Shown here piece after piece: positions 1 to 61,310 of a stretch of DNA of 61,310 bases. The position numbers and the translations under genes were made by a program. Source of the DNA: a virus; the IMG/VR virus record IMGVR_UViG_3300032360_000004, positions 1-61,310 of that record; one strand, given 5' to 3'. Every line of letters begins with the position of its first letter. Position 1 is the first letter of the stretch. The notes under the pieces are model-generated. The model did no database searches and had not been told where the DNA came from. It saw only the letters and a program-made list of their open reading frames with translations.

Positions 1-308
1 GCGAGGTGGACCGTAGTGTCATGGACCGGGTGACTAAGGTGTGCCTGGATACTGCCCGTGGTCAAACCATGATGATAGCCCAGCAACTACACGCAGCAGG
101 TACCACCAAGGGGGCTGCCCTGCGAGCTATAGCACTGGCCACTAACACCCCAGAGAATAAGACCCGCGAACTGTTGCGGTTCTTACAACGTATAGACGCA
201 GTAGAATCCTTTAGTACAGGTAAGGGTATCGGGGGCAATAAAGCCCGGTGGAGACTAACCGCTAAACTACAAACCCTATACACCACCGTACTGGGGGAAG
301 GGCAATGA
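1..308 (+). CDS. AAA-type ATPase/helicase, C-terminal part (continues the gene at 60096)
   Basis: This is the end of the gene that starts at 60096 and runs off the right edge. Bases 3-128 duplicate 61185-61310 and the reading frame continues exactly, so the full protein would be about 464 residues. The segment here looks like a small winged-helix domain: an alpha-helical stretch (GAALRAIALATNT, ENKTRELLRFLQRI) followed by a basic wing (GGNKARWRLT). Such C-terminal winged helices commonly bind DNA in phage replication ATPases. The stop overlaps the next start (ATGA), which suggests translational coupling with the sulfotransferase-like gene. A GTG inside the segment at position 6 is not the real start. 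Confidence 0.85.
   Translation, partial: EVDRSVMDRVTKVCLDTARGQTMMIAQQLHAAGTTKGAALRAIALATNTPENKTRELLRFLQRIDAVESFSTGKGIGGNKARWRLTAKLQTLYTTVLGEGQ
3..128 (+). repeat. Terminal direct repeat (left copy)
   Basis: Identical to 61185-61310. The real genome length is therefore about 61,182 bp. Confidence 0.95.
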
Positions 309-1201
309 CTATGACAACCCACGACTTAAGGTTGGACAGCCAATTAAACCTGGACCATGTGGAACACGTGGTGTCCATAGTGTCCTCGTCCCGTGCTGGC
401 AGCAGCCTGCTAAAGCACACCATGGCTCTGCACTCAGACCTATCCACATTGGCAGGGGAAGAGGAACCCTATTACAAGCTGGCCCACAACGGTTACCCGT
501 GGCACACCTGTGACGTGTTCCACAGTCTAAACGGATTAGACTACGTTAGGCTGCTTATGGCCAACGAACTGCACAACCACCAACAGCAGCACAACCGGGC
601 CTGGATACAATCACAAACGGTAGAAGAACCACCGTTCGTCCAGCCTAAACAGTGCCGTCTTACCCCCACCCTGTTGTTAAAGACTCCCCAGAACATATAC
701 CGCCGTGGGGTGCTGGAAGAACTATTTCCAGGGCGACGTATTAGTTACATCTACTTAACTCGTGGCTTTGCCCAAGTGGTTAACGGGCTTATAGATGGGT
801 GGTTGAGTGATGACTATAAAGCCCGGAAGACTGAGCAAGGGTGGTGGAAGTTTGATATGCCACCCGGTTGGGCATTCAGTCACCTCTACCAACGGTGCTA
901 CCACCAGTGGCGTATGGCTAACCTGTTTGGCCTTGGCGAGTACGATGATGCTAGCTACCGGTTAAAGTTTGAGGACTTTACACGTGATACTGATAGCGTG
1001 TGCCAACGGCTGTACCGTCTGCTGGGCCTGCCACCGCACTCAGTGCCACCCCTGGAAGACCTGCCCCACATCATGGCTACCAGTGCCCCCAAGCCACACA
1101 GGTGGCAGGGTAGAGCGTACTTGGCCAAACTGCTTGGCAGCCGGGCCGAACCTCTAATGACTAACTTAGGCTATAGCATGGACCAGTCTACATGGACATA
1201 A
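305..1201 (+). CDS. Sulfotransferase-like P-loop protein
   Basis: The 298-residue protein resembles PAPS-dependent sulfotransferases. Residues 27-34 (SSSRAGSS) form a loop like the 5'-phosphosulfate-binding loop. Residues 124-154 (LLLKTPQN, then FPGRRISYIYLTRG) match the usual 'lvlKtP ... fPdarfihlvRdP' strand that carries the 3'-phosphate-binding region, and LKFEDFTRDT near residue 222 fits the family's 'yEdL' segment. Sulfotransferases move sulfate from PAPS to a hydroxyl or amine. The substrate is unknown. The gene overlaps its upstream ATPase by 4 nt with a strong GGGGGAAGGG ribosome site, and overlaps the downstream AGPT-Pplase-like gene by 10 nt. That context suggests DNA-base modification, although modification of glycan or protein by the phage is equally possible. 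A kinase of similar fold is the main alternative. Confidence 0.7.
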   Translation: MTMTTHDLRLDSQLNLDHVEHVVSIVSSSRAGSSLLKHTMALHSDLSTLAGEEEPYYKLAHNGYPWHTCDVFHSLNGLDYVRLLMANELHNHQQQHNRAWIQSQTVEEPPFVQPKQCRLTPTLLLKTPQNIYRRGVLEELFPGRRISYIYLTRGFAQVVNGLIDGWLSDDYKARKTEQGWWKFDMPPGWAFSHLYQRCYHQWRMANLFGLGEYDDASYRLKFEDFTRDTDSVCQRLYRLLGLPPHSVPPLEDLPHIMATSAPKPHRWQGRAYLAKLLGSRAEPLMTNLGYSMDQSTWT

Positions 1202-2142
1202 TCGACTTTTGTAAGTTGTCTAAACTGAACATGGACAACTGCGACTTCGACTGTATCTACCCCCTAGTGACTGACCTAGCCAACCAAGGTGGGTGGAGTG
1301 ACAAAGATCGCCTGTGGTACTGCGTGCTGTACATGGTGTTTTACAATGAGTCGGCAGCCCTTACCTACTTCCATCATCCCAGGAGAGGGGCAACCCGGCT
1401 GCCCATAGACACAGCCCGTCGTTGCTTGCGTGGTGGCCGTATAGTACGCCACCTGGAAAGCTGGAAAGCCATTAGCCAAGGGCAGCACGTAGCCGACTAC
1501 CTATGTAACGGCTTTACAGATGACCGGGCAGCCAACTGGCACCAACTGCTGGACAACATACAGCAGGTATATGGAAACGGTAGGTGGGCAGGCTATACCA
1601 CGGCTGACCTGTTGCACAAGGTGTGTGGGTTACCCGTGCAGCCCACTAGCACAGGGTGGCGACAGAGTAGTGGTCCTAAGAATGGCCTGGAAAAGCTACC
1701 ACCCAATAAGCTGGCCCTAGACCAACGTGAGGGACATTGGCTTCGCAGGCTGGCACCCTTGGCACAGAAACACCTACGGCTGGCCTACTGGCCCGAGGGG
1801 TGGGATTACGGTGTGCTGGAGAGCCTGCTGTGTGACTGGGACGGGCTAACTAAGGGTGGCTATTACAGTGGCCGTAACCTGGACCGTATGCTCAACCGCA
1901 TGGGTAAGGTGTTGGATGTGACCGGCACCAGCAGCCCGTTGCTAAAGCAGATCCTAGAGAGTCGTCAGCGGGTGTACCCGGCTAACCAGTTAGGCGAACG
2001 GCATGGTTGGTACGCTATAGATCCCAAACGTAAGAAACACTACCTACAAACGGGGGAAGTATTATGTGGAGCAGAGGACCGCAAATCTATAACAGGTGCC
2101 ACCAGTTTAATGCAGTTCCTGGGCAGGCACTGGTGTGGGTAG
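1192..2142 (+). CDS. Putative alpha-glutamyl/putrescinyl thymine pyrophosphorylase, clade-3-like
   Basis: The 316-residue protein resembles the AGPT-Pplase clade 3 family, proposed to replace the pyrophosphate on activated hydroxymethyl-uracil in DNA with an amine such as putrescine or glutamate. What I see: an all-helical N-terminal half with GNGRWAGYTTADLL at 128-141, then ESLLCDWDGL at 210-219 and KGGYYSGRNLDRM at 221-233. These look like the conserved Cys-Asp-Trp and Gly-Tyr-Tyr blocks I recall for that family. The recognition is from memory of motifs, not alignment. The neighbours (sulfotransferase-like and ureohydrolase) and the separate kinase/hydroxymethylase cluster at 53-58 kb support a base-modification role. 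It overlaps the next gene by 79 nt in another frame. Confidence 0.5.
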   Translation: MDIIDFCKLSKLNMDNCDFDCIYPLVTDLANQGGWSDKDRLWYCVLYMVFYNESAALTYFHHPRRGATRLPIDTARRCLRGGRIVRHLESWKAISQGQHVADYLCNGFTDDRAANWHQLLDNIQQVYGNGRWAGYTTADLLHKVCGLPVQPTSTGWRQSSGPKNGLEKLPPNKLALDQREGHWLRRLAPLAQKHLRLAYWPEGWDYGVLESLLCDWDGLTKGGYYSGRNLDRMLNRMGKVLDVTGTSSPLLKQILESRQRVYPANQLGERHGWYAIDPKRKKHYLQTGEVLCGAEDRKSITGATSLMQFLGRHWCG

Positions 2143-2744
2143 ACGCCCACCCAGATTTCCACAGCAACGCCACCAGCATTAGCGGGTTCATAGGTGGCAA
2201 AGCCCTACACCGTATACGTAAGAAGTACGAGGCCATATACATACTGGGGGCACGCGACATAGAGCCTGGAGAGTTAGACAACATACGGGCCGAGGACCAC
2301 GTACACCTAGTAAGCGACGTGGACTACCTTGGCCTGCTGCCCAGTGGTGGCACTCACGTACATATAGACGGTGACGTGCTGGACCCACTGGTTAACCCAG
2401 ACGTGTCGTACCCGGTACGTTGGGGGTACACGGTGCAGGGCTTGGCTAACGTGCTGCTGCGGCTACCTGTAAGCCAGCTACAGGGCTGGTCGGTTAGTAA
2501 CATGGCCCCCGAGCTATTGGATGACCTGTGTAACCTGCTGCGTGGTCCTACGCTGTGCAGTGCTTGCGATGGCCCGTTCAACCTGGAAACCGAGGGTGGC
2601 CAGTGCGGTACCATCGGCACGTTTATAAACGTGGCCTTCTGCCCTACCTGCTTTGCAGGTATCTATGACATGGTGGACCAAATGAAACCACCCACCCCGT
2701 GCAACAAGTGCGACCGGGTGGGTGGGTGTGCGTCCCAGGGATGA
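2064..2744 (+). CDS. Arginase/agmatinase-family (ureohydrolase-like) protein with zinc-ribbon tail
   Basis: Two of the three metal-binding signatures of ureohydrolases are clear: WVDAHPDFHS at 25-34 (family DAHxD) and VHIDGDVLDPLVNP at 99-112 (family SxDxDxxDP), with an intervening ILGARDIEPGE like the family's 'IGvRdvdpgE'. Family members hydrolyse arginine to ornithine plus urea, or agmatine to putrescine plus urea, using two Mn ions. The usual N-terminal GGDHS region is missing: only about 26 residues precede DAHPD, and a lone His13 might substitute. Activity is therefore uncertain. The C-terminal 60 residues hold Cys pairs (CSAC, CPTC, CNKC) like a zinc ribbon, which is unusual for the family. 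The start has a strong GGGGGAAG site. Polyamine supply for base modification is an inference from neighbours. Confidence 0.72.
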   Translation: MWSRGPQIYNRCHQFNAVPGQALVWVDAHPDFHSNATSISGFIGGKALHRIRKKYEAIYILGARDIEPGELDNIRAEDHVHLVSDVDYLGLLPSGGTHVHIDGDVLDPLVNPDVSYPVRWGYTVQGLANVLLRLPVSQLQGWSVSNMAPELLDDLCNLLRGPTLCSACDGPFNLETEGGQCGTIGTFINVAFCPTCFAGIYDMVDQMKPPTPCNKCDRVGGCASQG

Positions 2745-2784: not shown

Positions 2785-2827
2785 AAAACGCACCCACCCG
2801 TAATACGCCAGTATACTGCTGGTTTAC

Positions 2828-2848: not shown

Positions 2849-3163
2849 ATGTCGCCCCCTTGCCCTGTACCGGGGTTACCGTGCTACCATGAGGGTTATG
2901 GGGTTGCAGGGCTTTACAGGCCCGTAGGCAGCCCCGTAGGGTACCCCAGCGTGCCCGTACATCTAACCCCCCGGTGCCACCACTGAAAACCCACCTTTCC
3001 TCCATGTTCTCTACGTGCGTTATGCGTTGCTACGGCTACCCGGCTGTCCGCTTGCTCCGGCTAGTAGGTTGTGCTGTGAACTGCGTAGCGTGTTGCATGA
3101 GAACAGTGTGGTTAGTAGGTGGTGGCACTTTTTACACCCCCAGTTATGTAGGGACCATCTACC

Positions 3164-49072: not shown

Positions 49073-49073
49073 C

Positions 49074-50428: not shown

Positions 50429-50502
50429 ACCCCTGTAGCTCAGTCGGTTAGAGCAGGGTGCTCATAACGCTTTGGTCGCAGGTTCGAATCCTGCCGGGGG
50501 TA
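50429..50502 (+). tRNA. tRNA-Met/Ile2 (CAU anticodon)
   Basis: A complete cloverleaf: acceptor ACCCCTG/CGGGGGT, D arm GCTC/GAGC, anticodon loop CTCATAA (anticodon CAT), T arm GCAGG-TTCGAAT-CCTGC, discriminator A. The anticodon stem has three G-T pairs and is weak. No CCA is encoded. The CAT anticodon could be elongator Met or, if lysidine-modified, Ile for AUA. The weak anticodon stem speaks against initiator Met. Confidence 0.92.
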
Positions 50503-50538
50503 CTAGGGTCAATAGAGTGGAAAGGATACCCACCATCG

Positions 50539-51102
50539 GTGATAAACAAAAAACTAGGGAAGCTGTTAAAGACAGCCAGAGCAACTAAACCCCAGTGGAA
50601 ACTATTACCGTCCGTACTGTTGTGCCCCAATATACCCAAGCCCCTGCACGGTGTAGCACCCCGTGTAATACTAGGTAGTAAGTGGTGGGACGTTACCCGT
50701 AGGGCAGCCTACGCCAGCACCGGGTACCACTGCCAAGCCTGTGGGGTGCATAAGTACCACGCCCGTCTACACCAGTGGTTAGAAGCCCATGAGGAGTACG
50801 ATACCGACTACCTGTTAGGTCGCATGACTTACATACGCTCTGTGCCCCTGTGCCACTACTGCCACGCCTATATACACAGTGGCCGACTGCAAGCCCTGCG
50901 GGACAAAGGTCAGATTAAACCCCAACTACACGACGAGATACTAAGCCACGGTGACCGGGTACTAAGGCAGGCAGGGCTAACCAAGCCACCAACACACAAC
51001 GGTCCTATGGCCGACTGGAGCGACTGGCGACTGGTGCTGAATGACAAACTATATCCACCAAAGTTTAAGACAGTAGAGGAGTGGGAAAAGGAGTTCGCAT
51101 GA
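50539..51102 (+). CDS. HNH-type endonuclease-like zinc protein
   Basis: The 187-residue protein, from GTG 50539 (AAAGGA about 13 nt upstream), has CQACG near 82 and later CHYCHAYIHSGRL, typical of HNH or related His-Cys zinc folds, with a basic start. Such proteins often nick DNA and occur near phage polymerase genes. The start is uncertain since the frame is open back into the tRNA. Its end overlaps the polymerase start (ATGA), so the two are coupled. Confidence 0.65.
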   Translation: MINKKLGKLLKTARATKPQWKLLPSVLLCPNIPKPLHGVAPRVILGSKWWDVTRRAAYASTGYHCQACGVHKYHARLHQWLEAHEEYDTDYLLGRMTYIRSVPLCHYCHAYIHSGRLQALRDKGQIKPQLHDEILSHGDRVLRQAGLTKPPTHNGPMADWSDWRLVLNDKLYPPKFKTVEEWEKEFA

Positions 51103-53099
51103 TTATAAGCCTAGACACAGAAACTACTGGACTGGATCTACGGCATGGCAGCAGGCCATTCCTGGTGACCATGTACAACAGCGACGACGTTACCACGTGG
51201 TGGGAGTGGGACGTAGACCCACTAACCCGGCAGCCTGTTGTACCCCCCGGTGACCTGGAAGAGGTACAGCAAACTATAGACAGTGCCGAGTTTATAGTTT
51301 TGCAGAACGCTAAGTTCGATGTAGCTGCCCTACAGTCTGTTTACCACGGCACCCTGGAATGGGATTGGTCCAAGGTCTATGACACCCTGTTGGCTGGCCA
51401 CCTGTTAGCAAGCAACCACCCCCACGACCTGACCACTATGGCCCTGATGTACTTGGGTGTAGATATAAAGTCCCAGGACAACACCGTGCAACAAGCCTGC
51501 AACGAGGCCCGTCGTATAGCACGCAGCAGGTACCCAGATTGGTTAATAGCCCGTAGTGACGACCCGACCATGCCCAGTGCTAAGGGTTCCCTAGCTAAGA
51601 GCGATATGTGGTTACCTCGTGCTGTGGCCAAGGTAGAACACTACCCCACTAACCACCTGTGGCATACGGTGTGTGCCCGATACGCCAATGTTGATAGTGA
51701 GGTCACCCTCCACCTGTTTAACCGCCAACGGCAGCTATTAGAGGAGCGGGGCTTGTGGGATATATACCTGACCCGCCTACGGGTGCTACCTATTGCATAT
51801 GACATGGAGAGCCGAGGCATAACTATATGCCGAAGCCGCCTGGAACAACTACAACAGGAGTACACAGAGGAGAGTGGCCAAGCTGGCCGGGTGTGTGTCA
51901 ACATTGCTACTAGTTTTGGTGCGGACCTACGCCTACCTAAAGGGGGTAATAACAACAGCCTGCTTAGTACCGTGTTTGGCAGTATGGGACTGGAGCCTGT
52001 TAAACGGTCTAAGAAAACTGGTGCTCCCAGCCTGGACAAGCAAACTATAGAACACTACGAAGCTACCCTGCCCCCACGAAGTAGGGAACTAACATTCGTA
52101 CAGGCACTAAGACGCAAACGCAAACGCGACACAGCCCTGCAATACATGGAAGGCTATATAAGGTTCTGGCTGCCCTTAGACAGTGACCAGGACACCGGGT
52201 GGTACCGCTTGCACCCCAGCCTAAACCCAACAGGTACGGACACCCTGCGGTGGAGCAGTAGTAACCCCAACGAGCAGAACATCAGCAAGCAGGAAGGGTT
52301 TAACCTGCGGCACTGCTTTGGCCCAGCACCGGGCCGTGAGTGGTGGAGCCTGGATGCTAAGAATATAGAACTGCGTATACCCGCCTATGAGGCTGGGGAG
52401 ACCGAGATGGTAGACCTGTTCGAACGTAGTGACGAACCGCCCTACTACGGCAGCTACCATATGTTAATATTCGACACCCTGCATCCAGACAAGTTTGCCC
52501 AGTACGGTATGGAATGTAAACAGCGGTACGGCAGCACGTGGTACCAGTGGACCAAGAATGGAAACTTCGCTGTGCAGTACGGGGCAGTGGAAGCCAGCGG
52601 TACCGCTGACCGGGCCTATCATATACCGGGTGCCCAGCACCGCATACAGGAACGATTCTCTAAGGTGGCTGCTCTTAATACTAAGATGATAGAGTTCGCC
52701 ACCCAGCACGGTTACGTAGAGACCATGCCAGACCTGACCGTAGATCCCACCCGTGGCTACCCGCTGCTATGTACACTGAGCCAGTGGGGTGAAGTGCTGC
52801 CCACTGTGCCCCTGAACTACCACGTACAGGGAACAGCTATGTGGTGGATGATGAAGGCCATGTTGAGGTGCCAGGAGTACCTGGACACGTTACCCGGCTG
52901 CTACATGGTTATGCAGATACACGACGAACTGGTGTTTGACTTTCCACAAGGCAAGGGGCTACAGCCGTGGCGTACTAATATGCCCCGCATCCGCAGGATT
53001 AAAAGCCTGATGGAAGAGAGTGGTAAGGACCTAGGAATACCCACACCCGTCAGTTTAGAATATCACCCCACCACCTGGAGCGAGGGTATGGTCCTATGA
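51099..53099 (+). CDS. polA: Family A DNA polymerase
   Basis: The 666-residue protein has 3'-5' exonuclease motifs ISLDTETTGL (ExoI, near residue 3-12), LQNAKFDVAAL (ExoII) and CARYANVDSEVTL (ExoIII), and polymerase motifs WWSLDAKNIELRIPAYEAGE near 417-436 (motif A), KNGNFAVQYGA near 485-495 (motif B) and MQIHDELVFDFP near 605-616 (motif C). It replicates the phage genome. ATG 51099 overlaps the previous stop. The Phe in NFAVQYG indicates normal discrimination against dideoxynucleotides. Its ability to use hydroxymethyl-dUTP is unknown. Confidence 0.95.
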   Translation: MIISLDTETTGLDLRHGSRPFLVTMYNSDDVTTWWEWDVDPLTRQPVVPPGDLEEVQQTIDSAEFIVLQNAKFDVAALQSVYHGTLEWDWSKVYDTLLAGHLLASNHPHDLTTMALMYLGVDIKSQDNTVQQACNEARRIARSRYPDWLIARSDDPTMPSAKGSLAKSDMWLPRAVAKVEHYPTNHLWHTVCARYANVDSEVTLHLFNRQRQLLEERGLWDIYLTRLRVLPIAYDMESRGITICRSRLEQLQQEYTEESGQAGRVCVNIATSFGADLRLPKGGNNNSLLSTVFGSMGLEPVKRSKKTGAPSLDKQTIEHYEATLPPRSRELTFVQALRRKRKRDTALQYMEGYIRFWLPLDSDQDTGWYRLHPSLNPTGTDTLRWSSSNPNEQNISKQEGFNLRHCFGPAPGREWWSLDAKNIELRIPAYEAGETEMVDLFERSDEPPYYGSYHMLIFDTLHPDKFAQYGMECKQRYGSTWYQWTKNGNFAVQYGAVEASGTADRAYHIPGAQHRIQERFSKVAALNTKMIEFATQHGYVETMPDLTVDPTRGYPLLCTLSQWGEVLPTVPLNYHVQGTAMWWMMKAMLRCQEYLDTLPGCYMVMQIHDELVFDFPQGKGLQPWRTNMPRIRRIKSLMEESGKDLGIPTPVSLEYHPTTWSEGMVL

Positions 53100-54001
53100 A
53101 GATTGAACAGGTGGCCAAGCTGTCACCACAGGCACGGCTATTATACTGGATACGTGAGCGGCACCAGATTTACCTACGTCGTAAAGCTGGCAAGCCTACA
53201 CCGTGGACCGATGACCAGATACTACAAACAGCCTTCTTTACAAATCCCTACCGTGAGCACGACCGTACTACTATCTGGCTCAGGGAAAACTTTAGGGATG
53301 AGCATAGAAAGCAACCCAGTGTAGTAACTGGGACCATTATATATAGGTGGTTCAATCGCATAGAGACGGGGCAAGTGTTGCTACAACATGGCCTGTTGAC
53401 TAGGTGGAAGCCCCGGCTTGCCATGAGAGTGCTGGGGGAGTTGGCCAAGCCCTTCACCAGTGCCTACATCATTAGCACCCGGTCAGCCCCCAAGGGTACC
53501 AGTAAGCTGGAAGCCGTCTGTAACTATATAGACCAAGTGTGGAACCACAGGACAAGACTGCCAGCCAGGATAGAGACCTGCGGCACCATGCAGCAGACTG
53601 TGGACATACTTAAACAGTATGAAGGGCTAGGACCGTTCATGTCTTACGAGATAGCCTGCGACCTGAGATACACCCGCTACTTACAGGATGCCCCAGACGT
53701 TACTACATACACACAGGTAGGACCGGGTGCTCGCAGGGGCTTATACCGTCTCCAGGGATTACAACCCAAGAAGCGGCTCAACCGTAACACCGGGGGCACT
53801 GGCTGGTACGGGGCCAGTCAGCCAACCCTGGAAGACGAAATAGGAACTGTGCAACAAGTCATGCAGCTTATTAATGGGGGAACTAAGATCCGAGTCCCCG
53901 TGTTTGAAATGAGGGAGGTGGAACATAGTCTGTGCGAGTGGGATAAGTATGAACGGGTGTTACAGGGAGAACGACCCAAACGTAAATACATGGGAGCCTA
54001 G
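53096..54001 (+). CDS. 5-hmdU DNA kinase helical / AGPT-Pplase clade-2-like protein, copy 1
   Basis: The 301-residue protein has the family pattern FFTNPYREHDRTT near residues 47-59, YEGLGPFMSYEIACDLRYTR near 177-196, VGPGARRGLYRLQG near 210-223 and FEMREVEHSLCEWDKYERVL near 269-288. These appear in proteins proposed to add amines or other groups to 5-hydroxymethyluracil in DNA or to form the helical part of the hmdU DNA kinase. It overlaps the polymerase stop (ATGA) and is followed by a paralogue and then by the P-loop kinase. Assignment is by remembered motifs, and activity is not proven. Confidence 0.8.
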   Translation: MKIEQVAKLSPQARLLYWIRERHQIYLRRKAGKPTPWTDDQILQTAFFTNPYREHDRTTIWLRENFRDEHRKQPSVVTGTIIYRWFNRIETGQVLLQHGLLTRWKPRLAMRVLGELAKPFTSAYIISTRSAPKGTSKLEAVCNYIDQVWNHRTRLPARIETCGTMQQTVDILKQYEGLGPFMSYEIACDLRYTRYLQDAPDVTTYTQVGPGARRGLYRLQGLQPKKRLNRNTGGTGWYGASQPTLEDEIGTVQQVMQLINGGTKIRVPVFEMREVEHSLCEWDKYERVLQGERPKRKYMGA

Positions 54002-54003
54002 TT

Positions 54004-54903
54004 ATGTTGAGTGAGCAAGTGGCCAAGCTAACATCCAGGGACAGGTTTATTTATTGGATACGTGAACGGCACCAGATATATAGGAAACGCAGGGCAGGCC
54101 AGATTGCACCGTGGACAAATGACCCGGTGCTGCGACAATACTTCTTTACCAACCCGTACCGGGAGAACGACAAGGTAACCCAGTGGTTCAGGCAGCACCT
54201 GCGGGAACCCCTGCGGGATGATCCCCGTGTGCTGTTTGCCACCGTGGCCTTTAGGTGGTTTAACCTGCCTAGTACGGGCTGTGCGTTGATGCACTACCCC
54301 AGTGAGGGTAAATGGCCGGGTTTACTGGGCAAGTGGCGTACAGGGGCAGCCACGGCCCTTCTAGGGGGCTTGAAAGAACAGGGTAAGGTGTTTACCGGGG
54401 CATTCAACATATCCGCCAGCGGCAGTACCAAGCCCAAGGTCAACCGGGTGTGTGAGGACTACATAGAACCCGTGTGGAGGGACCGTGCCAACCTGCTGCA
54501 CCGGGTAGAGGGTTGTACCACCCTGCAGGATGCCCACGCCCTGCTAAGGCAATACACCGGGCTGGGTGGTAGTGGCTTTATGGCCTACGAAATCATATGC
54601 GACCTGCGGTATACCTACCTGCTGGAAGACGCCACTGACATATGCACCTGGACCAACCCCGGTCCGGGCTGCCACCGTGGGCTGGCCCGCCTGGAAGGGC
54701 AAAGCCTACAGGGGGCACGACGGGTGAAGGTGGATGAACCACTAATAAAGATGCGGGACTTGCTGGCGTACACCCGTAGACGGCTACCGTCGATGCAGTT
54801 TGAAATGCGGGAGATAGAGCACAGCCTATGTGAGTACGATAAGTATGAGCGAGCACGGCTTAGCGAAGGACACCTTAAAAGAAAGTACCACCCCTCCTCA
54901 TGA
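54004..54903 (+). CDS. 5-hmdU DNA kinase helical / AGPT-Pplase clade-2-like protein, copy 2
   Basis: The 299-residue protein is a paralogue of the one upstream: FFTNPYRENDKVTQWF near residues 46-61, LGGSGFMAYEIICDLRYTYL near 182-201, NPGPGCHRGLARLEGQ near 218-233 and FEMREIEHSLCEYDKYERAR near 265-284. The two share the start (EQVAKLT/S, YWIRERHQIY). Two copies may have different roles, one as kinase partner and one as transferase, or may act together. The gene overlaps the kinase by 4 nt. Confidence 0.8.
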   Translation: MLSEQVAKLTSRDRFIYWIRERHQIYRKRRAGQIAPWTNDPVLRQYFFTNPYRENDKVTQWFRQHLREPLRDDPRVLFATVAFRWFNLPSTGCALMHYPSEGKWPGLLGKWRTGAATALLGGLKEQGKVFTGAFNISASGSTKPKVNRVCEDYIEPVWRDRANLLHRVEGCTTLQDAHALLRQYTGLGGSGFMAYEIICDLRYTYLLEDATDICTWTNPGPGCHRGLARLEGQSLQGARRVKVDEPLIKMRDLLAYTRRRLPSMQFEMREIEHSLCEYDKYERARLSEGHLKRKYHPSS

Positions 54904-55445
54904 CTGTGATTGATATACGTGGCACCCATGGCAGTGGTAAGAGTTGGTGTATGCACCAGCTACTAGACCAGTACGAACACCAACCCATAACTGAGGAAGG
55001 CAAGCACATAGGATACACACTGCCTGACCTGGAAGCAGCCTTGGTAGGTAAGTACGCCACAGTGACCGGGGGTTGTGACGGGGTGGGAACAGCCGATGAG
55101 GTGGTCCGCCGGGTCAGGCTGTTCGCCAGCCAGTACAGGTACGTATTACTAGAGGGGATATTAGTGTCCCACTCATTCAAGCGGTACCACGAGCTAGCCC
55201 TGGAAGTGGGTGACTACCGGTGGTTGTTTATGTCTACACCACTGCGGAACTGCATAGCCCGTGTGCGTGCCAGGAGAAGAGCACGTGGCAACCTGAAACC
55301 ACTAAGCCCACACAACGTAATTAAGGACCACGTCAGCGTGTGGACCAACATACAACGCAAGGCTCGGGACGCAGGCCACCGGGTGGTGGTGGTGCCGTGG
55401 CGTGACCCGCTGCCCACTGTGCTGCACGAACTGGGAGTATCCTAG
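54900..55445 (+). CDS. P-loop kinase, probable 5-hmdU DNA kinase
   Basis: The 181-residue protein has Walker A GTHGSGKS (8-15) and a Walker B-like YVLLEGILVSHS near 84-95, plus an Arg-rich segment RVRARRRARGNLKPL near 125-139, as in small nucleotide/DNA kinases. Kinases of this type convert hydroxymethyluracil in phage DNA to a phosphorylated form. Overlap with the AGPT-type gene (ATGA) and proximity to a TS-type hydroxymethylase support this. A chloramphenicol-phosphotransferase-like small-molecule kinase is the alternative. Confidence 0.7.
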   Translation: MTVIDIRGTHGSGKSWCMHQLLDQYEHQPITEEGKHIGYTLPDLEAALVGKYATVTGGCDGVGTADEVVRRVRLFASQYRYVLLEGILVSHSFKRYHELALEVGDYRWLFMSTPLRNCIARVRARRRARGNLKPLSPHNVIKDHVSVWTNIQRKARDAGHRVVVVPWRDPLPTVLHELGVS

Positions 55446-55474
55446 TCATGACCACCGGGCAGGTACCAAAGAAA

Positions 55475-55506
55475 AACCCCCACCCCCCAAAGGGGGCAGG
55501 GGTTAC
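55475..55506 (-). terminator. Intrinsic terminator of the histone-like gene (possibly bidirectional)
   Basis: AACCCC plus CCCCC pair with GGGGG and GGGGTT in a GC-rich hairpin, and on the minus strand TTTTTCTTTG follows. It is 20 nt after the histone-like gene stop and 30-60 nt after the kinase stop on the plus strand. Confidence 0.75.
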
Positions 55507-55525
55507 AACAGCCGGGCCAGTGGCC

Positions 55526-56014
55526 CTAGCTAAACTTCAACATCTTTGCCAAGCCGGGGGCCGTCAGTTTGGGACCCTTGGCCGCAACCTTGCTGGCCTT
55601 CTTGGGTGCCTTCTTGGCCTTGGCCTTGGCCTTGGCCTTGGGGGCAGCCTTGGGGGCAGCCTTCAGGGTCTTGGTGCCCTTGGCCGTGACGGCGAAGCAG
55701 AACCGTGCTCGGCCGTGGTTGTCCTGGGCCTCATGGCTCTTGATGAGTCCCTGACCTTCCAGGCTGTTGGGGTAGCTGGCACCCTTGCTACTGTTGGCAG
55801 CCATCATGCGGGTCAGCCCCTTCAAGATGCCCGTGGCAACCCGGACGTCATTGTAGGACACGTTGCCCTTGGCCTTGGCCACTGCGGTCAGGATTCTAAC
55901 CTGACTGCCCGTGAGTCCAGCAACCTTGGGGCCAGTGGCCTTGCGGGTCTTGCGGCTGGCCTTGGGGCTGGCCTTCTTGGTGTTCTTCTTGGCAGTCTTC
56001 TTGGCAGTCTTCAT
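55526..56014 (-). CDS. Histone-H1-like protein, short form from an internal start
   Basis: Inside the long gene and in the same frame, GGAGCAAGC (56016-56024) lies one nt before ATG 56014, using the motif that precedes many starts in this genome. Translation from there would give 162 residues: the Lys-rich linker, winged-helix-like core and basic tail without the unknown N-terminal part. The frame has no stop between the two, so either a fusion arose by loss of a stop or both forms are made. The spacing from GGAG to ATG is normal (about 6 nt). Confidence 0.55.
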   Translation of the reverse strand: MKTAKKTAKKNTKKASPKASRKTRKATGPKVAGLTGSQVRILTAVAKAKGNVSYNDVRVATGILKGLTRMMAANSSKGASYPNSLEGQGLIKSHEAQDNHGRARFCFAVTAKGTKTLKAAPKAAPKAKAKAKAKKAPKKASKVAAKGPKLTAPGLAKMLKFS

Positions 56015-56332
56015 AGCTTGCTCCTTGCCACTCTTGGTGGCTTTGGAAACTTGACGGGAGGTACGCTGCCCCGACTTCAGCAACAGAGTGCAGGGCACAG
56101 CCTGCACATTGAGGAAACCTTGATTTGTACGGGTGGCAACCTGCTTGGCAGCCAACTCAGGAGAACCGGCCCAACCCAGCACACCGTCTCCGGGCAGGTT
56201 GTAATGTCTGGTCTCGCCGGTTGCAGGGTGGTGGATCCCAGTGGCCGTAATGCAGTGGGTGTAGGTGCGGGCCGTGGTGCGGGTGTGGATGGTGCCGTCT
56301 TGGGCGGTTATGGTGTAGGTTTTCTTGGACAT
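55526..56332 (-). CDS. Histone-H1-like protein, long form
   Basis: The 268-residue protein from ATG 56332 (GGAGCAAGC five nt upstream) has an N-terminal part (KKTYTITAQDGTIHTRTTAR, PGDGVLGWAGSPELAAKQVA) not known to me, followed by a Lys/Ala-rich linker (KTAKKTAKKNTKKASPKASR), a winged-helix-like core (LTGSQVRILTAVAKAKGNVS and LEGQGLIKSHE) and a Lys/Ala/Pro tail (APKAAPKAKAKAKAKKAPKK). The layout is like histone H1 or H1-like bacterial proteins that compact DNA. It lies inverted inside a plus-strand operon. A second start at 56014 gives a shorter form. Confidence 0.75.
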   Translation of the reverse strand: MSKKTYTITAQDGTIHTRTTARTYTHCITATGIHHPATGETRHYNLPGDGVLGWAGSPELAAKQVATRTNQGFLNVQAVPCTLLLKSGQRTSRQVSKATKSGKEQAMKTAKKTAKKNTKKASPKASRKTRKATGPKVAGLTGSQVRILTAVAKAKGNVSYNDVRVATGILKGLTRMMAANSSKGASYPNSLEGQGLIKSHEAQDNHGRARFCFAVTAKGTKTLKAAPKAAPKAKAKAKAKKAPKKASKVAAKGPKLTAPGLAKMLKFS

Positions 56333-56428
56333 GGTTGCTTGCTCCGTTTGCGTGGGCCGTGTGAATGTCATAAACGAACTATCCCAGTTATCGGCAAACA
56401 GCACAAGCCCCCTGCACCTGTTTTGGCA

Positions 56429-56444
56429 AGTTTGTTATAAATAG
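56429..56444 (+). promoter_or_regulatory. Promoter/operator-like element before the nucleotide genes
   Basis: AGTTTGTTATAAATAG matches the element at 45836-45851 in 13 of 16 positions and has TATAAA 33 nt before the deoxyribosyltransferase-like start. It lies in the divergent gap next to the histone-like gene. The -35 region is not obvious. Confidence 0.5.
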
Positions 56445-56473
56445 CAAGCAAACCCCTCGTTTTGGAGTCCCAA

Positions 56474-56923
56474 ATGCCCCCAGAAACTTTGCCCCCAAGC
56501 CAAGAAAAGCCGCCAATCGTGTACCTTGCGGTGCCCTACAGCCATGCGGATCCGCTGGTGATGGAGGCCCGTTACCGGGCTGTCACCCACGCAGCCGGGC
56601 GATTGCTGGCACAGGGACGGCACGTGTTCAGCCCCATCACCCACACCCACCCCATAAAGGTAGCTGCCGGTCAGGTTGACCTGTGGGACTCCTGGGCAGC
56701 GTACGACACTGCCGTCATGACCAACCTGTGTAGCAGCATGGTGGTACTATGCCTAAAGGGGTGGCGTACCAGTACCGGGGTGCGTGCTGAAAGACAACTG
56801 GCTCGATCCCTGGGACTGCCTATCAGCTACCTGCTGCCCCAGCATTGTGGCCTCCGCCCCAGATACCCGTACCAAGACTGGCAGCCGATGATCCCCGATA
56901 TCCCAACCCGTCCCAACGCCTAA
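56474..56923 (+). CDS. DUF1937 / nucleoside 2-deoxyribosyltransferase-like protein
   Basis: The 149-residue protein begins at ATG 56474 with TGGAG upstream. IVYLAVPYSHADPLVMEARY near residues 15-34 and GRHVFSPITHTHPIKVAA near 48-65, then WDSWAAYDTAVMTNLCSSMV near 74-93, follow the fold of deoxyribosyltransferases and DNPH1-type N-hydrolases ('vylA.Pys....v...R...v......L...G..vfsPi..'). Such enzymes cut or exchange the base of deoxynucleotides. In this context it may clear or recycle hydroxymethyl-dUMP or dNMPs. It precedes the hydroxymethylase gene by 41 nt. Confidence 0.75.
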   Translation: MPPETLPPSQEKPPIVYLAVPYSHADPLVMEARYRAVTHAAGRLLAQGRHVFSPITHTHPIKVAAGQVDLWDSWAAYDTAVMTNLCSSMVVLCLKGWRTSTGVRAERQLARSLGLPISYLLPQHCGLRPRYPYQDWQPMIPDIPTRPNA

Positions 56924-56964
56924 AACCAGTATCCCAACCGTCCCAGCCCGTCCCAAGGTATTCC

Positions 56965-58098
56965 ATGCACTACCAGTACCGTAATGTAAATGATGCGTTT
57001 GTTGGGCTTGTCCAGGCTATTCACACTGGGGAACTGCCCACGGTGGTGACACCCAGCCGGGCCGGTGAAGTCATGATGGTACCCCACCCGGTGCTGGTCA
57101 GTTACACCCACCCACTGGAGCGGGTGCTGCTGCACACAGGCCGGGACGCTAACCCGTTCTTCCACCTCTTTGAAAGTCTGTGGATGTTGGCCGGGTGCAA
57201 CACCGTGGCTCCACTGCTGTACTACAACAGCCGCATAGCAGCCATTGCCAGCGATGACGGCAAGACGTTTAACGGTGCCTACGGTTACCGCTGGCGACAC
57301 CCCGTGGACCAGCTAGCCGTTATCATTGAACACCTACGGGCCACGCCTGGAAGCCGTCGTGCCGTATTGCAAATGTGGAACACGCAGGATGACCTACTGC
57401 GGGTGGATGATACTAAAGACGTGTGCTGCAACACGCACGTGTACTTTAGCGTGGAACAGGGCACGTGTCCTGACTGCAACGGCACTGGCTATAACAGTGT
57501 GTGGAGCTTGGGCACCCAAGGACCAGAGCCTTGCACACGGTGCAACGGCTTACCCCACGACCAACCCACCTACCTGAACATGACCGTATGCAATAGGAGC
57601 AACGATCTGCTGTGGGGTTTGCTGGGTGCCAACGTGGTCCACTTCAGTGTGCTGCAAGAATACGTAGCCCTGAGCCTGGGATTACAGGTTGGCACCTACT
57701 ACCAGTTTACTAACAACCTGCACGTGTACACCGAAAGGTGGACCCCGGAAAAGTGGTCTGCCTTTGAGCGGTCCAAAGGGCAGGCACCTTACGCACTTCC
57801 ACAGGCCAAGCGTGTACCGTTGGTAGAGCAGCCGGACAGGTTCAATGCAGAGTGTAAGCAGTTTGTGGACGGGCCACTCATACCGCCAACCCTTGTAGGA
57901 GAGGGGCGGTTTAACTGGAAGGAGCCGTTCTTACAACACGTGGCTGCTCCCATGTGTTGGGCCTACCGTCTATACAAGCAACGGGAATACGCCCTAGCTT
58001 TAAGAACTGTGGACGAGGTGTGGGACCGTGACTGGCGGACTGCCGCTACCAACTGGATACAAAAACGGCAGGCCCGGTATCTGGATAAGTCATCATAA
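56965..58098 (+). CDS. Thymidylate-synthase-family nucleotide hydroxymethylase with zinc-ribbon insertion
   Basis: The 377-residue protein matches the thymidylate synthase fold: FHLFESLWMLAGCNTVAPLL near residue 68-87, FNGAYGYRWRHPVDQLAVII near 98-117, LQMWNTQDDL, the nucleophile block DVCCNTHVYFSV (Cys155), then LNMTVCNRSNDLLWGLLGAN, and YYQFTNNLHVY. The CNTH form instead of PCH is typical of phage deoxynucleotide hydroxymethylases. Between them residues 168-193 hold CPDC and CTRC pairs, a DnaJ-like zinc insertion. It is therefore probably a dUMP (or dCMP) hydroxymethylase; dUMP fits the neighbouring hmdU genes. ATG 56965 was chosen over an upstream start that overlaps the previous gene. Confidence 0.85.
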   Translation: MHYQYRNVNDAFVGLVQAIHTGELPTVVTPSRAGEVMMVPHPVLVSYTHPLERVLLHTGRDANPFFHLFESLWMLAGCNTVAPLLYYNSRIAAIASDDGKTFNGAYGYRWRHPVDQLAVIIEHLRATPGSRRAVLQMWNTQDDLLRVDDTKDVCCNTHVYFSVEQGTCPDCNGTGYNSVWSLGTQGPEPCTRCNGLPHDQPTYLNMTVCNRSNDLLWGLLGANVVHFSVLQEYVALSLGLQVGTYYQFTNNLHVYTERWTPEKWSAFERSKGQAPYALPQAKRVPLVEQPDRFNAECKQFVDGPLIPPTLVGEGRFNWKEPFLQHVAAPMCWAYRLYKQREYALALRTVDEVWDRDWRTAATNWIQKRQARYLDKSS

Positions 58099-58652
58099 TG
58101 ATTTTACCTACAGCAGTACGCAGCAAACGCAATTTCGTAGAGCGGTACCAGCGGGGTGAGTTCGGAAACCGCAGCCCTACCTGGAATGACCTAACGGAAT
58201 GCCTAGCTAGCGGGTACACGGGATTGGTACATATCCGTAACCGGGTACGTGGTGGGGCTACATGGTATGACGTGCCTCACGGGGGGCTACAAGATGCGTG
58301 GAAGCACGCTGTTGATAAGTGCGGCAAGATCCACCTATACATAAGTGCAATGGCCCCAACGGACCGCACCGTGCTCCAGGGAGAAGTACAGCAGGGCTAC
58401 CACGGGCTGGATCTATATTACACCACCGTAGCTCAACCCATGCGGCAGGCACTAGCCACCAGCAGCAGGCAGGTACGTGGTATAATGGCTAGTTGGCTAC
58501 TGCGGTACCACCTGTGTCCTAATAGCCATGACTGGCTGTTGTACCTGCTGGACGCCTACCCCAATCACGTGGTGGAGTTTAGTGCGTACGAAAGACCATG
58601 GGGAACAGTACCGGGGCACAACACAGTCTTCTGGGAAGTCCGTCAATACTAA
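58098..58652 (+). CDS. Conserved hypothetical protein in the modification cluster
   Basis: The 184-residue protein overlaps the hydroxymethylase stop (TAATG). FGNRSPTWNDLTECLASGYT near residues 22-41, GLVHIRNRVRGGATWYDVPH, YISAMAPTDRTVLQGEVQQG and CPNSHDWLLYLLDAYPNHVV look conserved and enzyme-like, with several Arg and His. I do not know a function. Its coupling with the hydroxymethylase suggests a role in the nucleotide or base-modification pathway, perhaps with the AGPT-type proteins. Confidence 0.65.
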   Translation: MILPTAVRSKRNFVERYQRGEFGNRSPTWNDLTECLASGYTGLVHIRNRVRGGATWYDVPHGGLQDAWKHAVDKCGKIHLYISAMAPTDRTVLQGEVQQGYHGLDLYYTTVAQPMRQALATSSRQVRGIMASWLLRYHLCPNSHDWLLYLLDAYPNHVVEFSAYERPWGTVPGHNTVFWEVRQY

Positions 58653-58669: not shown

Positions 58670-59167
58670 ATGGACCCAACACAATACCAACAACTGGCAG
58701 CACGCACTGAGTGTGACCAGGAAGCAGCCCGACAACGTGTAGCAACCGACAATATGTTACGCACCACCCGGCTGCTGCACGCCTGCTTAGGATTGTCTGG
58801 AGAGGTAGGTGAGTTGTCTGCTGCTGCCGAACGCTGGGTGTACTACGGGCACGACCTGGATGCAGGTAATGTAAAGGAGGAGGTAGGTGATTGCCTGTGG
58901 TACCTAGCCCTAGCCTGTAACGCCCTAGGCTTGGACATGGCACAGGTGATGGAAGCTAACATAGCTAAGCTGCGTCAGCGGTACCCTTCTAAGTATAGTG
59001 ACGACCAAGCCCTGGAAGTTAACCGTGACCGGGCAGCAGAACGCAGCATAGTGGAAGGTGTCCCCGACAGTGACCAAAACCCCATGGTACAAAATGGCCA
59101 AGGCTGGGCCGAGCCACCTTGGGGATTTAATGCCCACCGATTAGATAACGATAACTGTGATGCTTAG
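58670..59167 (+). CDS. MazG-like nucleotide pyrophosphohydrolase
   Basis: The 165-residue protein starts at ATG 58670 after GGGAGCAAGC. GLSGEVGELSAAAERWVYYG near residues 43-62 and KEEVGDCLWYLALACNALG near 71-89 supply the E-x2-E and E-x2-D helices of the MazG family; the C-terminal part (ANIAKLRQRYPSKYSDDQA) also matches. It hydrolyses nucleoside triphosphates to monophosphates. In a base-modifying phage such an enzyme could remove unmodified dTTP or dUTP. Confidence 0.88.
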   Translation: MDPTQYQQLAARTECDQEAARQRVATDNMLRTTRLLHACLGLSGEVGELSAAAERWVYYGHDLDAGNVKEEVGDCLWYLALACNALGLDMAQVMEANIAKLRQRYPSKYSDDQALEVNRDRAAERSIVEGVPDSDQNPMVQNGQGWAEPPWGFNAHRLDNDNCDA

Positions 59168-59203: not shown

Positions 59204-60103
59204 GTGCCTGTTAAAGATGATAAACCCCCCGAGAAGCTCAGACCGTTTATATTCCACGGGGTGGACCTGTCCTGGTCTTCAGGAGATAACAACGCCATGG
59301 CAGACTGTCCCCTATGTGGCCGGGAGGGCCGGTTCGGGGTGAAGATAGAGACCGGCGAATATAACTGTTTCAAGTGTGGGGAGACTGGTAACGCGACTGT
59401 GTTTCTGCGTTGGTTGTGGGACACCAGCACACAGGCAACCACTACGGAGCAGTACCGGCAGTTAGCTACTGACCGGGGTTTGTTAATGCCTGACTGCCTG
59501 ATCCACTGGGGCATCTGTGTGAGTGCTATTACAGGGGACTGGCTGGTACCCGGTTACAACTCCAAGGGTAACCTGTGCCAGCTATACAGGTACCTGCACA
59601 CGGCCAAGGGGGCACGCCTGCTGCCCACGCCCACCATGGGGCACCAGCTACACGGTGGGAACCTATATAACGGGAAGAAGCCGCTGGTGTATATATGTGA
59701 GGGACCTTGGGACGCCATAGCCCTGTGGGAAATGCTGAGCATGGCCCGGTATAAGGAGGAGGATGAACGGCTGGCTCCAACGGCTAACATCAGCAACAGC
59801 CTGCTGGCACAGGCTAACGTGGTAGCGGTGCCGGGCTGCACTACTTTCGCCAAGGCATGGCTACCCCTGTTTGCTGGCAAGGTGGTGGTGTTGATGTATG
59901 ACAACGACCACCCCCGCACTCATCCGTCCACTGGTAAGACTGTAGCCCCGGCAGGCTATGCTGCCATGCAACGGGTAACCCGGTTGCTAATGTCAGCCCA
60001 TAAGCCACCCCAGGAAATTAACTATCTATGTTGGGGTGAGGATGGAGGCTACGACCCCAACCTACCCAGCGGTACAGACGTAAGGGATATGCTAGATGCC
60101 TAG
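59204..60103 (+). CDS. DNA primase (CHC2 zinc finger plus Toprim)
   Basis: The 299-residue protein uses GTG 59204 with AAGGAG upstream. CPLCGREGRFGVKIETGEYN and CFKCGETGNATVFLRW (residues about 35-71) form the zinc-binding domain. VYICEGPWDAIALWEML near 165-181 and KVVVLMYDNDHPRTH near 225-239 are Toprim Glu and DxD motifs. It makes RNA primers. It overlaps the following ATPase gene by 8 nt, so primase and ATPase/helicase probably act together. Confidence 0.92.
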   Translation: MPVKDDKPPEKLRPFIFHGVDLSWSSGDNNAMADCPLCGREGRFGVKIETGEYNCFKCGETGNATVFLRWLWDTSTQATTTEQYRQLATDRGLLMPDCLIHWGICVSAITGDWLVPGYNSKGNLCQLYRYLHTAKGARLLPTPTMGHQLHGGNLYNGKKPLVYICEGPWDAIALWEMLSMARYKEEDERLAPTANISNSLLAQANVVAVPGCTTFAKAWLPLFAGKVVVLMYDNDHPRTHPSTGKTVAPAGYAAMQRVTRLLMSAHKPPQEINYLCWGEDGGYDPNLPSGTDVRDMLDA

Positions 60104-61310
60104 ACCACCAATAACCAACGACACAACCACTAACGTCATAGACCGTATACGCAACCTGGAAGCCCTGTTGGATCTGACTAAGGGGGTGCCCAAATCCTGG
60201 AAGACGGCTAAGGCCAGCAGCAACGGGCAAGCTACTGACGACGATGATACTTCAGTGGACCTAACCGGGGGTGACATGGACTCCCTGCCCTGCACCAGCT
60301 ATAAGGTGCTAATTAATGCGTGGCGTAGGGCACTGCGTTGGACTGATGGACTGGACCGTGCTCTAAGTGTTATGCTGGCCAGCATCACCAGCACGAAAAG
60401 TGTTGGCGACCAGCTATGGATAAAGATCATAGGTCCAGCCGCTTGTGGTAAGAGCACCCTGTGTGAAGCTGTTAGCGTCAATAAGGATTACGTGTTGGCC
60501 AAGAGCACCATCCGGGGCTTTCATAGTGGGTGGCGGGAAACCGGTGAGGACAGTGAGGATAATAGCCTAGTGGCCATGGTGGCAGGCAAGACGTTAGTAA
60601 CTAAGGACGGGGACACGCTGCTGCAAAGCCCCAACCTAAGCCAGATACTAGCCGAGGCCCGTGACCTGTACGACAGCACCAGCCGTACCCATTACCGTAA
60701 CACTATGAGCAAGGACTATAGCGGTATCCGCATGACGTGGCTGCTATGCGGCACCAGTAGTCTACGCAGCATAGACGAGAGTGAACTGGGTGAGCGGTTC
60801 TTGGACTGCGTAATCATGGACGGCATAGATGATGACCTGGAAGACGAGGTGCTGTGGCGGGTGGCTAACCGGGCTGACCGTAACCTAGCTATAGAGGCGG
60901 ACGGTGGGCCTGAAACTCACTACGAGCCTGAACTGGCTACAGCTATGAGGTTAACCGGGGGATATGTAACCTACCTGAGGACCAACGCTAAGACCCTACT
61001 GGGTACCATTACCAGTCCCACGTGGGTACTAAGACGGTGTACCCAGCTTGGTAAGTTTGTGGCTTTCATGCGAGCACGCCCCAGCCTCCGCCAGGAGGAG
61101 ACGGCCGAGCGTGAGTTCGCCGCCCGGTTAGTGAGCCAACATATACGGCTGGCCAAGTGCCTAGCTGCTGTGATGAACCGTAGTGAGGTGGACCGTAGTG
61201 TCATGGACCGGGTGACTAAGGTGTGCCTGGATACTGCCCGTGGTCAAACCATGATGATAGCCCAGCAACTACACGCAGCAGGTACCACCAAGGGGGCTGC
61301 CCTGCGAGCT
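60096..61310 (+). CDS. AAA-type replication ATPase/helicase, N-terminal part (continues at 1-308)
   Basis: The gene starts at ATG 60096 inside the primase end and runs off the right edge; it continues at position 3 after the terminal repeat to a stop at 306-308. Walker A IIGPAACGKST is at residues 111-121. KTLVTKDGDTLLQ near 166-178 may be Walker B. MTWLLCGTSSLRSIDESELG near 223-242 holds a sensor and Arg-finger-like residues. It resembles phage helicases paired with primases. The C terminus is a winged helix. Window part about 405 residues of about 464. Confidence 0.85.
   Translation, partial: MPRPPITNDTTTNVIDRIRNLEALLDLTKGVPKSWKTAKASSNGQATDDDDTSVDLTGGDMDSLPCTSYKVLINAWRRALRWTDGLDRALSVMLASITSTKSVGDQLWIKIIGPAACGKSTLCEAVSVNKDYVLAKSTIRGFHSGWRETGEDSEDNSLVAMVAGKTLVTKDGDTLLQSPNLSQILAEARDLYDSTSRTHYRNTMSKDYSGIRMTWLLCGTSSLRSIDESELGERFLDCVIMDGIDDDLEDEVLWRVANRADRNLAIEADGGPETHYEPELATAMRLTGGYVTYLRTNAKTLLGTITSPTWVLRRCTQLGKFVAFMRARPSLRQEETAEREFAARLVSQHIRLAKCLAAVMNRSEVDRSVMDRVTKVCLDTARGQTMMIAQQLHAAGTTKGAALRA
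61185..61310 (+). repeat. Terminal direct repeat (identical to 3-128)
   Basis: The last 126 bases are the same as bases 3-128. One base earlier the two copies differ (T at 61184, C at 2), a synonymous change in a Ser codon. This is what a circular or circularly permuted genome looks like after assembly. Confidence 0.95.

What the first reader, a model, noticed from the sequence alone, without database searches (positions are those of the whole stretch)
53096..58652. Candidate thymine-hypermodification system
Seven plus-strand genes include two 5-hmdU-kinase-helical/AGPT-Pplase-type proteins, a P-loop kinase, a deoxyribosyltransferase-like protein, a TS-type hydroxymethylase with a CNTH active site, and an unknown coupled gene. 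MazG-like, polymerase and primase genes are in the same operon. Known phages with hypermodified thymine use dUMP hydroxymethylase, a 5-hmdU DNA kinase and amine transferases. The gene set here fits that logic, yet the exact set (two tandem AGPT-type proteins, separate kinase) differs from any I can recall.
Basis: partly seen in the sequence, partly recalled or inferred. Interest (0 to 1): 0.9.

Follow-up and report, generated by a model that had tools for sequence, protein, structure and literature searches.

The report
Split phage thymine-hypermodification cassette with sulfotransferase
A virus of microbes appears to carry the genes to replace part of the thymine in its DNA with a heavily altered base, using a known core pathway plus an unusual trio of enzymes that hints at a new arginine-type or sulfated base.

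Summary
The window is a closed phage genome: its ends overlap (127/128 bases), so bases 129-3000 follow 61310.

Genes A and B both belong to HMUDK_hel (M6 gp55 family), not to the transferase family; a separate kinase is normal (M6 gp54). ORF 55448-56440 is probably antisense to a conserved minus-strand gene.

Core pathway (inferred, ~0.9): dUMP to 5-hmdUMP, incorporation, kinase, ADDT. New: sulfotransferase and ADDT also sit together in two other viral contigs, each with an arginine-deiminase-family gene; in one, all lie in a ParB-Tet/JBP-kinase-sulfotransferase-ADI-ADDT row. So the module probably builds an arginine/ornithine-type, possibly sulfated, thymine adduct (inferred, ~0.45).

Tandem HMUDK_hel is unusual: 69 of 69 other HMUDK_hel-bearing records searched have one copy. 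HMUDK_hel also occurs without a detectable kinase in 30 of 52 representative loci, so it is not simply a kinase part.

A new variant of a known kind.

The parts
53096..54001 (+). HMUDK_hel protein A (301 aa)
   Evidence: PF18723 168.7 bits; departs at 3 of 37 conserved columns
54004..54903 (+). HMUDK_hel protein B (299 aa)
   Evidence: PF18723 165.9 bits; no departure at 37 conserved columns
54900..55445 (+). P-loop kinase, probable 5-hmdU DNA kinase
   Evidence: phrog_800 7.7e-19; M6 gp54 2e-8; 53-56% in L008, L012; below Pfam HMUDK_HMUD1 cut-off
55526..56404 (-). lysine/alanine-rich winged-helix-like protein, conserved slot
   Evidence: PadR 25.5 bits just below cut-off 27; similar minus ORFs in L008, L009, L010, L012
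56462..56923 (+). DUF1937 / deoxyribosyltransferase-like; possible dTMP-pool enzyme
   Evidence: DUF1937 69 bits; L008, L010, L012 have NT5C nucleotidases in this slot
56965..58098 (+). TS-family dUMP hydroxymethylase candidate
   Evidence: phrog_5131 2.5e-92; active-site Cys and Asn
58098..58652 (+). conserved partner downstream of TS, ATP-grasp-like model, role unknown
   Evidence: alignment A4, model pLDDT 96.9; structural matches
58670..59167 (+). MazG-like pyrophosphohydrolase
   Evidence: MazG 39.3 bits
59204..60103 (+). Toprim/primase-like protein
   Evidence: phrog_47 6.8e-17
60096..61310 (+). helicase-like ORF, continues across the join to 129-308
   Evidence: open frame to the window end; ends overlap; helicase by position and by eye
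305..1201 (+). sulfotransferase
   Evidence: PF13469 41.8 bits, cut-off 27; 51-52% homologue before ADDT in L132
1192..2142 (+). ADDT, amino acid:DNA transferase
   Evidence: PF18724 54.9 bits, cut-off 26.2
2064..2744 (+). arginase-fold metallohydrolase-like protein, short N-terminus
   Evidence: PF00491 49.6 bits, cut-off 22, profile 112-259 of 280; GGGGGAA site before ATG
51081..53099 (+). family A DNA polymerase
   Evidence: DNA_pol_A 104 bits
43941..45452 (-). ParB-like protein, possible further member
   Evidence: 8.6e-97 to a profile of ParB-like proteins of L100 and L114

Best explanation
A thymine-hypermodification pathway in two blocks of the replication region of a closed phage genome. 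(1) The TS homologue makes 5-hmdUMP from dUMP; MazG and the DUF1937 protein lower the dTTP/dTMP pool; the family A polymerase incorporates 5-hmdU (about 0.9 for the hydroxymethylase). (2) The P-loop kinase, with one or both HMUDK_hel proteins, phosphorylates 5-hmdU in DNA (about 0.8). (3) ADDT replaces the phosphate with an amino acid (about 0.75). (4) The amino acid or its product is of the arginine/ornithine/citrulline type and the arginase-fold protein acts on it, on DNA or as free precursor (about 0.45). (5) The sulfotransferase sulfates the adduct or leftover 5-hmdU (about 0.35). The two HMUDK_hel copies may serve two DNA-acting enzymes or sequence contexts (about 0.3). Steps 1-3 follow known pathways by homology; 4-5 are inferred from recurring gene neighbourhoods; no step is shown by experiment. 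The confidence given is for steps 1-3 together with 4 or 5 in some form.
For: Core: TS, HMUDK_hel twice, kinase and ADDT all present, the gene types of M6 (gp51 ADDT, gp54 kinase, gp55 HMUDK_hel, gp58 TS). Module: the window sulfotransferase has a 51-52% homologue in L132 directly before an ADDT (35% to the window's) and then an ADI-family protein (28.7 bits, cut-off 22.8). L150 has ParB_N - Tet_JBP - kinase - sulfotransferase (27.1 bits, cut-off 27) - ADI (25.2 bits) - ADDT in one direction. L132's contig also has a Ploopntkinase3 kinase, 72.8 bits. Of 50 ADDT records, 2 have ADI, both among the 3 with PF13469 over cut-off (hypergeometric 0.0024). Both ADI proteins keep QHLL and GGG..C stretches (their catalytic meaning is recalled). 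Arginase and ADI families both act on guanidino groups (family knowledge). A related cassette (L011-L013) pairs ADDT with a carbamoyltransferase and AsnB, also arginine-pathway-like.
Against: No nucleoside data. The kinase is below the Pfam cut-off. The arginase-fold protein lacks the N-terminal part that holds the first metal-binding histidine (role recalled) and fails the NCBIfam arginase cut-off (29.4 vs 227.6 bits); its structure model was useless (pLDDT 36.8). L150 scores are barely over cut-off. Only three phages carry the set, and the test was made after the pattern was seen. The third sulfotransferase-positive ADDT record (G099, an M6-type cassette) has no ADI, and its sulfotransferase is remote from ADDT and of another subtype. 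Arginase was not searched in the 80 ADDT loci with the Pfam model, only by phmmer (0 hits). 77 or so of the ADDT loci show neither sulfotransferase nor ADI by my profiles.
Confidence: 0.5

Rival explanations
1. Core pathway as above, but an ordinary known end product: ADDT adds glycine or another simple amino acid, as in M6/PaMx11-type phages, and the sulfotransferase and arginase-fold genes are neighbours with other jobs (for example altering host polysaccharide or arginine metabolism).
For: ADDT and kinase are of known families. Moron-like cargo between helicase and terminase is common in relatives (N6/N4 methylases in 4 of 7 loci tested). The arginase-fold protein is incomplete.
Against: Overlapping genes 305-2744 and recurrence of sulfotransferase + ADDT + guanidino-family gene in L132 and L150. 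No PLP, radical SAM, FAD or GNAT match in the window.
Confidence: 0.3
2. The guanidino enzymes and sulfotransferase prepare or activate substrates rather than tailor DNA: arginase fold/ADI make ornithine or citrulline for ADDT, and the sulfotransferase makes 5-sulfooxymethyl-dU as a leaving group beside or instead of the phosphate.
For: PhiW-14 putrescinyl groups are labelled by ornithine (passage of PMC5977210). Sulfotransferase lies next to kinase and ADDT in L150.
Against: A kinase is present in all three phages, so a second activating enzyme is not needed.
Confidence: 0.2
3. The TS homologue and its neighbours make only 5-hmdU (or glycosylated 5-hmdU-like) DNA; HMUDK_hel and ADDT are relics.
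For: HMUDK_hel often occurs without a detected kinase (30 of 52 representatives).
Against: B keeps all 37 conserved columns, A 34; ADDT keeps the residues invariant in its seven-member alignment.
Confidence: 0.07

Closest known systems
Pseudomonas phage M6 thymidine hypermodification cluster (5-(2-aminoethyl)-dU)
   Same: TS homologue, separate P-loop kinase, HMUDK_hel and ADDT near a family A polymerase
   Different: No blast match in the window to the M6 PLP enzyme, radical SAM, Nmad5 or HD proteins; two HMUDK_hel; ADDT in another branch (17% to M6 gp51); sulfotransferase and arginase-fold genes
Pseudomonas phage Ab18/PaMx11-type clusters (FAD enzyme, GNAT)
   Same: B is nearest to this group among named phages (42-43%); kinase 32-34%
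   Different: No match to their FAD enzyme or GNAT in the window
Actinophage ParB - oxygenase - ADDT - kinase systems (Rhodococcus phage Tonitrus, Gordonia phage CaiB)
   Same: ADDT of the same branch (28-30%)
   Different: Tet-like oxygenase annotated in Tonitrus instead of a TS route; no sulfotransferase annotated in the stretches seen
IMG/VR contigs L132 and L150
   Same: sulfotransferase + ADDT + guanidino-family enzyme + kinase
   Different: ADI family instead of arginase fold; L150 has Tet_JBP; no HMUDK_hel in L132's contig nor in the 15 kb around L150 by local profile
Delftia phage PhiW-14 (alpha-putrescinylthymine)
   Same: 5-hmdU route; putrescinyl group labelled by ornithine (passages); kinase homologue
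   Different: No sulfotransferase or arginase annotated in the 24-42 kb stretch seen; rest of the genome not examined

Membership tests
5-hmdU-derived thymidine hypermodification systems (general) | dUMP hydroxymethylase of the TS family | tested here: met
   by sequence only: phrog_5131 2.5e-92; active-site Cys and Asn
5-hmdU-derived thymidine hypermodification systems (general) | 5-hmdU DNA kinase | tested here: inconclusive
   HMUDK_HMUD1 below cut-off (20.9 vs 27); phrog_800 7.7e-19; M6 gp54 2e-8
5-hmdU-derived thymidine hypermodification systems (general) | HMUDK_hel protein | tested here: met
   two, 168.7 and 165.9 bits
5-hmdU-derived thymidine hypermodification systems (general) | ADDT amino acid:DNA transferase | tested here: met
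   54.9 bits, cut-off 26.2
5-hmdU-derived thymidine hypermodification systems (general) | modified thymine in virion DNA | not testable with these tools
   no virion
M6 5-NedU pathway | radical SAM and PLP enzymes | tested here: not met
   no blast match of M6 gp52/gp53 among window ORFs at 1e-3
Arginase | family profile PF00491 | tested here: met
   49.6 bits, cut-off 22, partial (112-259 of 280)
Arginase | arginase equivalog score (TIGR01229) | tested here: not met
   29.4 vs 227.6 bits
Arginase | N-terminal part with first metal-binding His | tested here: not met
   gene starts at 2064, just before DAHPD; frame closed shortly upstream; ligand role recalled
Sulfotransferase PF13469 | family profile over cut-off | tested here: met
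   41.8 bits, cut-off 27
Sulfotransferase PF13469 | PAPS-dependent sulfation | not testable with these tools
   needs an assay
ATP-grasp (gene 58098-58652) | fold | tested here: inconclusive
   Foldseek best 2.0e-4, TM about 0.4-0.5; best Z 9.0, rmsd 4.2, 157 residues; no Pfam ATP-grasp family in any of 7 members

The most novel reading that the evidence does not exclude
The phage DNA carries a sulfated thymine derivative built on an arginine/ornithine-type side chain: ADDT couples a guanidino amino acid (or its product) to phosphorylated 5-hmdU, the arginase-fold (or ADI-family) enzyme converts the guanidino group, and the sulfotransferase adds sulfate; two HMUDK_hel proteins direct two DNA-acting enzymes. 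It would be a natural sulfated nucleobase in DNA; three literature searches of the held library listed none, which does not show absence.
Probability: 0.25. Interest if true: 0.9.

Novelty: new variant of a known kind. Interest (0 to 1): 0.66.

Why it matters
Phages protect their DNA with altered bases, and the amino-acid-on-thymine route is known for few chemistries (recalled: glycine- and serine-derived bases in M6 and ViI; putrescinyl and glutamyl bases earlier). A recurring sulfotransferase-ADDT-guanidino-enzyme module predicts a specific new chemistry that one LC-MS run could test. That HMUDK_hel often occurs without a detectable kinase also changes how the family should be read: as a general partner of enzymes that act on 5-hmdU in DNA.

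Tried and rejected
Reading A and B as amino-acid transferases: rejected, both are HMUDK_hel, not ADDT.

Early idea that the pathway stops at phosphorylated 5-hmdU for want of a transferase: rejected once ADDT was found.

ORF 55448-56440 as a gene: rejected in favour of the minus-strand gene.

A and B as a recent tandem duplication: not supported. They are 44% identical; both lie in one 14-row clade (87/87), and B groups with L117 and L112 (100/96) rather than with A, whose place is unresolved.

Gene 58098-58652 as NADAR or another named family: NADAR only weak (0.021); no Pfam family over cut-off in any of 7 members. It was not compared with Nmad5.

Searches without result: ADDT and the arginase-fold protein as single sequences in viral contigs; the arginase-fold protein, the sulfotransferase and gene 58098-58652 in named phages; arginase family in 83 records (0 of 83). 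The arginase-fold model failed. Sulfotransferase-like readings of L092 5426 and L103 3169 were by eye: Pfam gave nothing at 0.01, and PF13469 only 15.6 bits in L103's record, below cut-off.

Key papers (Lee 2018, Lee 2021/22, Iyer 2013, Wen 2024) are not held; what I say of their content is recalled or from passages of other papers.
Full report
What the window is. It is a 61,310-base IMG/VR virus record. Its first 128 and last 128 bases agree at 127 positions, as for a closed circle; the paper on phage Lydia reports 127-base direct repeats at the ends of its initial assembly (passage). Base 61310 therefore continues at 129, and the helicase-like ORF from 60096 ends at 308. The terminase-like protein 4353-5930 has only remote relatives in named phages (best 30%). 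The polymerase is about 45-63% identical to those of related IMG/VR loci and 22-23% to those of M6-group phages, so the lineage is distant from named phages although the cassette resembles theirs.

Check of the observation. A and B each match HMUDK_hel over nearly the whole profile. M6 gp55 is the same family, M6 gp51 is ADDT and M6 gp54 is the kinase. So the pair is two HMUDK_hel proteins, and a separate kinase is normal. The window's own kinase is a weaker member. The TS homologue keeps the active-site Cys and has Asn where CMP hydroxymethylase MilA has Asp, which by TS-family knowledge favours a uracil substrate. The plus ORF 55448-56440 is probably not a gene. ADDT lies at 1192-2142, between a sulfotransferase gene (305-1201, 10-base overlap) and an arginase-fold gene (2064-2744, 79-base overlap). 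The arginase-fold start has a GGGGGAA site.

Relatives. Searching viral contigs with A gave 80 kept loci of 122 confirmed. Searching with a profile of gene 58098-58652 gave 39 loci. L008-L013 and many of L091-L118 share the order polymerase, HMUDK_hel, kinase, variable enzymes, minus-strand lysine-rich gene, nucleotidase, TS, 58098-like gene, MazG, Toprim, helicase. The variable slot holds radical SAM + ADDT + PLP (L009, L091 and others, by blast), FAD + ADDT (L010), ADDT + carbamoyltransferase + AsnB (L011-L013), a Mom family protein (L099), TET-associated glycosyltransferase (L106), SPASM radical SAM (L117), amidoligase (L102), aldo-keto reductase (L105) or FkbM methyltransferase (L095). The window has DUF1937 where L008, L010 and L012 have NT5C nucleotidases.

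Two HMUDK_hel. In 83 distinct IMG/VR records searched, 69 have HMUDK_hel and each has exactly one; the two calls used 50 of the 82 loci then offered, and 43 records. In named phages A finds 110 places in 108 records and B 103 in 101. A departs at 3 of 37 conserved columns, B at none. HMUDK_hel occurs without a kinase hit in 81 of 111 loci, or 30 of 52 representatives at 80% identity. In six such loci that I read, the next genes look, by eye, like glycosyltransferases or radical SAM proteins. Caveats: loci are at most about 19 kb, some truncated, and the kinase profile is my own. A Pelagiphage paper likewise reports TS with aG/PT-PPlase1 as a pair (passages). My reading: HMUDK_hel is a general DNA partner, and two copies might serve two enzymes or contexts.

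The module. The window sulfotransferase found one relative in viral contigs, L132, at 51%; it is followed by ADDT (35% to the window's) and an ADI-family protein. A profile of seven ADDTs gave 80 kept loci of 97. Among them L150 has Tet_JBP, kinase, sulfotransferase, ADI and ADDT in a row, with ParB_N upstream. Of 50 records given (50 of 80 loci), ADI occurs in 2 and PF13469 over cut-off in 3, both ADI records included. The third, G099, carries a different sulfotransferase (38 bits) away from ADDT and no ADI. The three module sulfotransferases share many invariant residues. Thus sulfotransferase, ADDT and a guanidino-group enzyme recur together in three divergent phages: arginase fold once, ADI twice. 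Many other ADDT loci have FAD-type or kinase neighbours and no such set. This is the basis for proposing an arginine/ornithine/citrulline-type adduct, perhaps sulfated. That these enzymes prepare the free amino acid instead is also open.

Weak points. The arginase-fold protein lacks the N-terminal third of the family profile and fails the arginase equivalog score; I do not call it an arginase. The association test was post hoc. No structure of it could be had. Gene 58098-58652 has a confident model whose listed PDB matches are ATP-grasp-type enzymes, best Z 9.0 at 4.2 A over 157 residues, but TM-scores of about 0.4-0.5 leave this open, and its role is unknown.

Verdict. Core thymine hypermodification: about 0.9. 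Specific chemistry: about 0.45 for an arginine-type adduct and 0.35 for sulfation. A new variant of a known kind.

Noticed in passing
43941-45452 (-): Homologue (8.6e-97) of a ParB-like protein that sits between HMUDK_hel and a Mom-family gene in L099-L101 and L114; may belong to DNA modification.
   Followed up: partly
L012:9875-13109: ADDT cassette with aspartate/ornithine carbamoyltransferase and asparagine synthetase, possibly another new thymine chemistry.
   Followed up: partly
L099:2261-3097, L114:6383-7141: Mom protein family (72.8 bits, L099) in the slot beside HMUDK_hel and TS; L114's is the same by local profile.
   Followed up: no
L106, L117, L112, L103, L092: TET-associated glycosyltransferase and SPASM radical SAM genes beside HMUDK_hel; Pfam-tested in L106 (TAGT) and L117 (SPASM), the others by local profile or eye.
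   Followed up: partly
L133-L139: Relatives of gene 58098-58652 in archaeal (Woesearchaeota, Pacearchaeota) and bacterial assemblies.
   Followed up: no
46585-47142 (+): Uracil-DNA glycosylase superfamily gene (74.3 bits) in a phage expected to use a uracil derivative; homologues in L010-L013.
   Followed up: no
49032-49286 (+): CsrA family regulator (78.5 bits) encoded by the phage.
   Followed up: no
50429-50503 (+): tRNA-Met overlapping the listed start of ORF 50458-51102 (HNH-like by eye; no Pfam family over cut-off); the true start is probably downstream.
   Followed up: no
L094, L111, L118, L091 downstream of the helicase: N6/N4 DNA methylases (5 of 10 proteins tested, 4 of 7 loci) in the locus where the window carries sulfotransferase-ADDT-arginase-fold.
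   Followed up: partly
G043, G046, G044, G036, G024, G022: The ADDT profile weakly matches the C-terminal part of HMUDK_hel proteins (below cut-off), suggesting that the two families are homologous.
   Followed up: no
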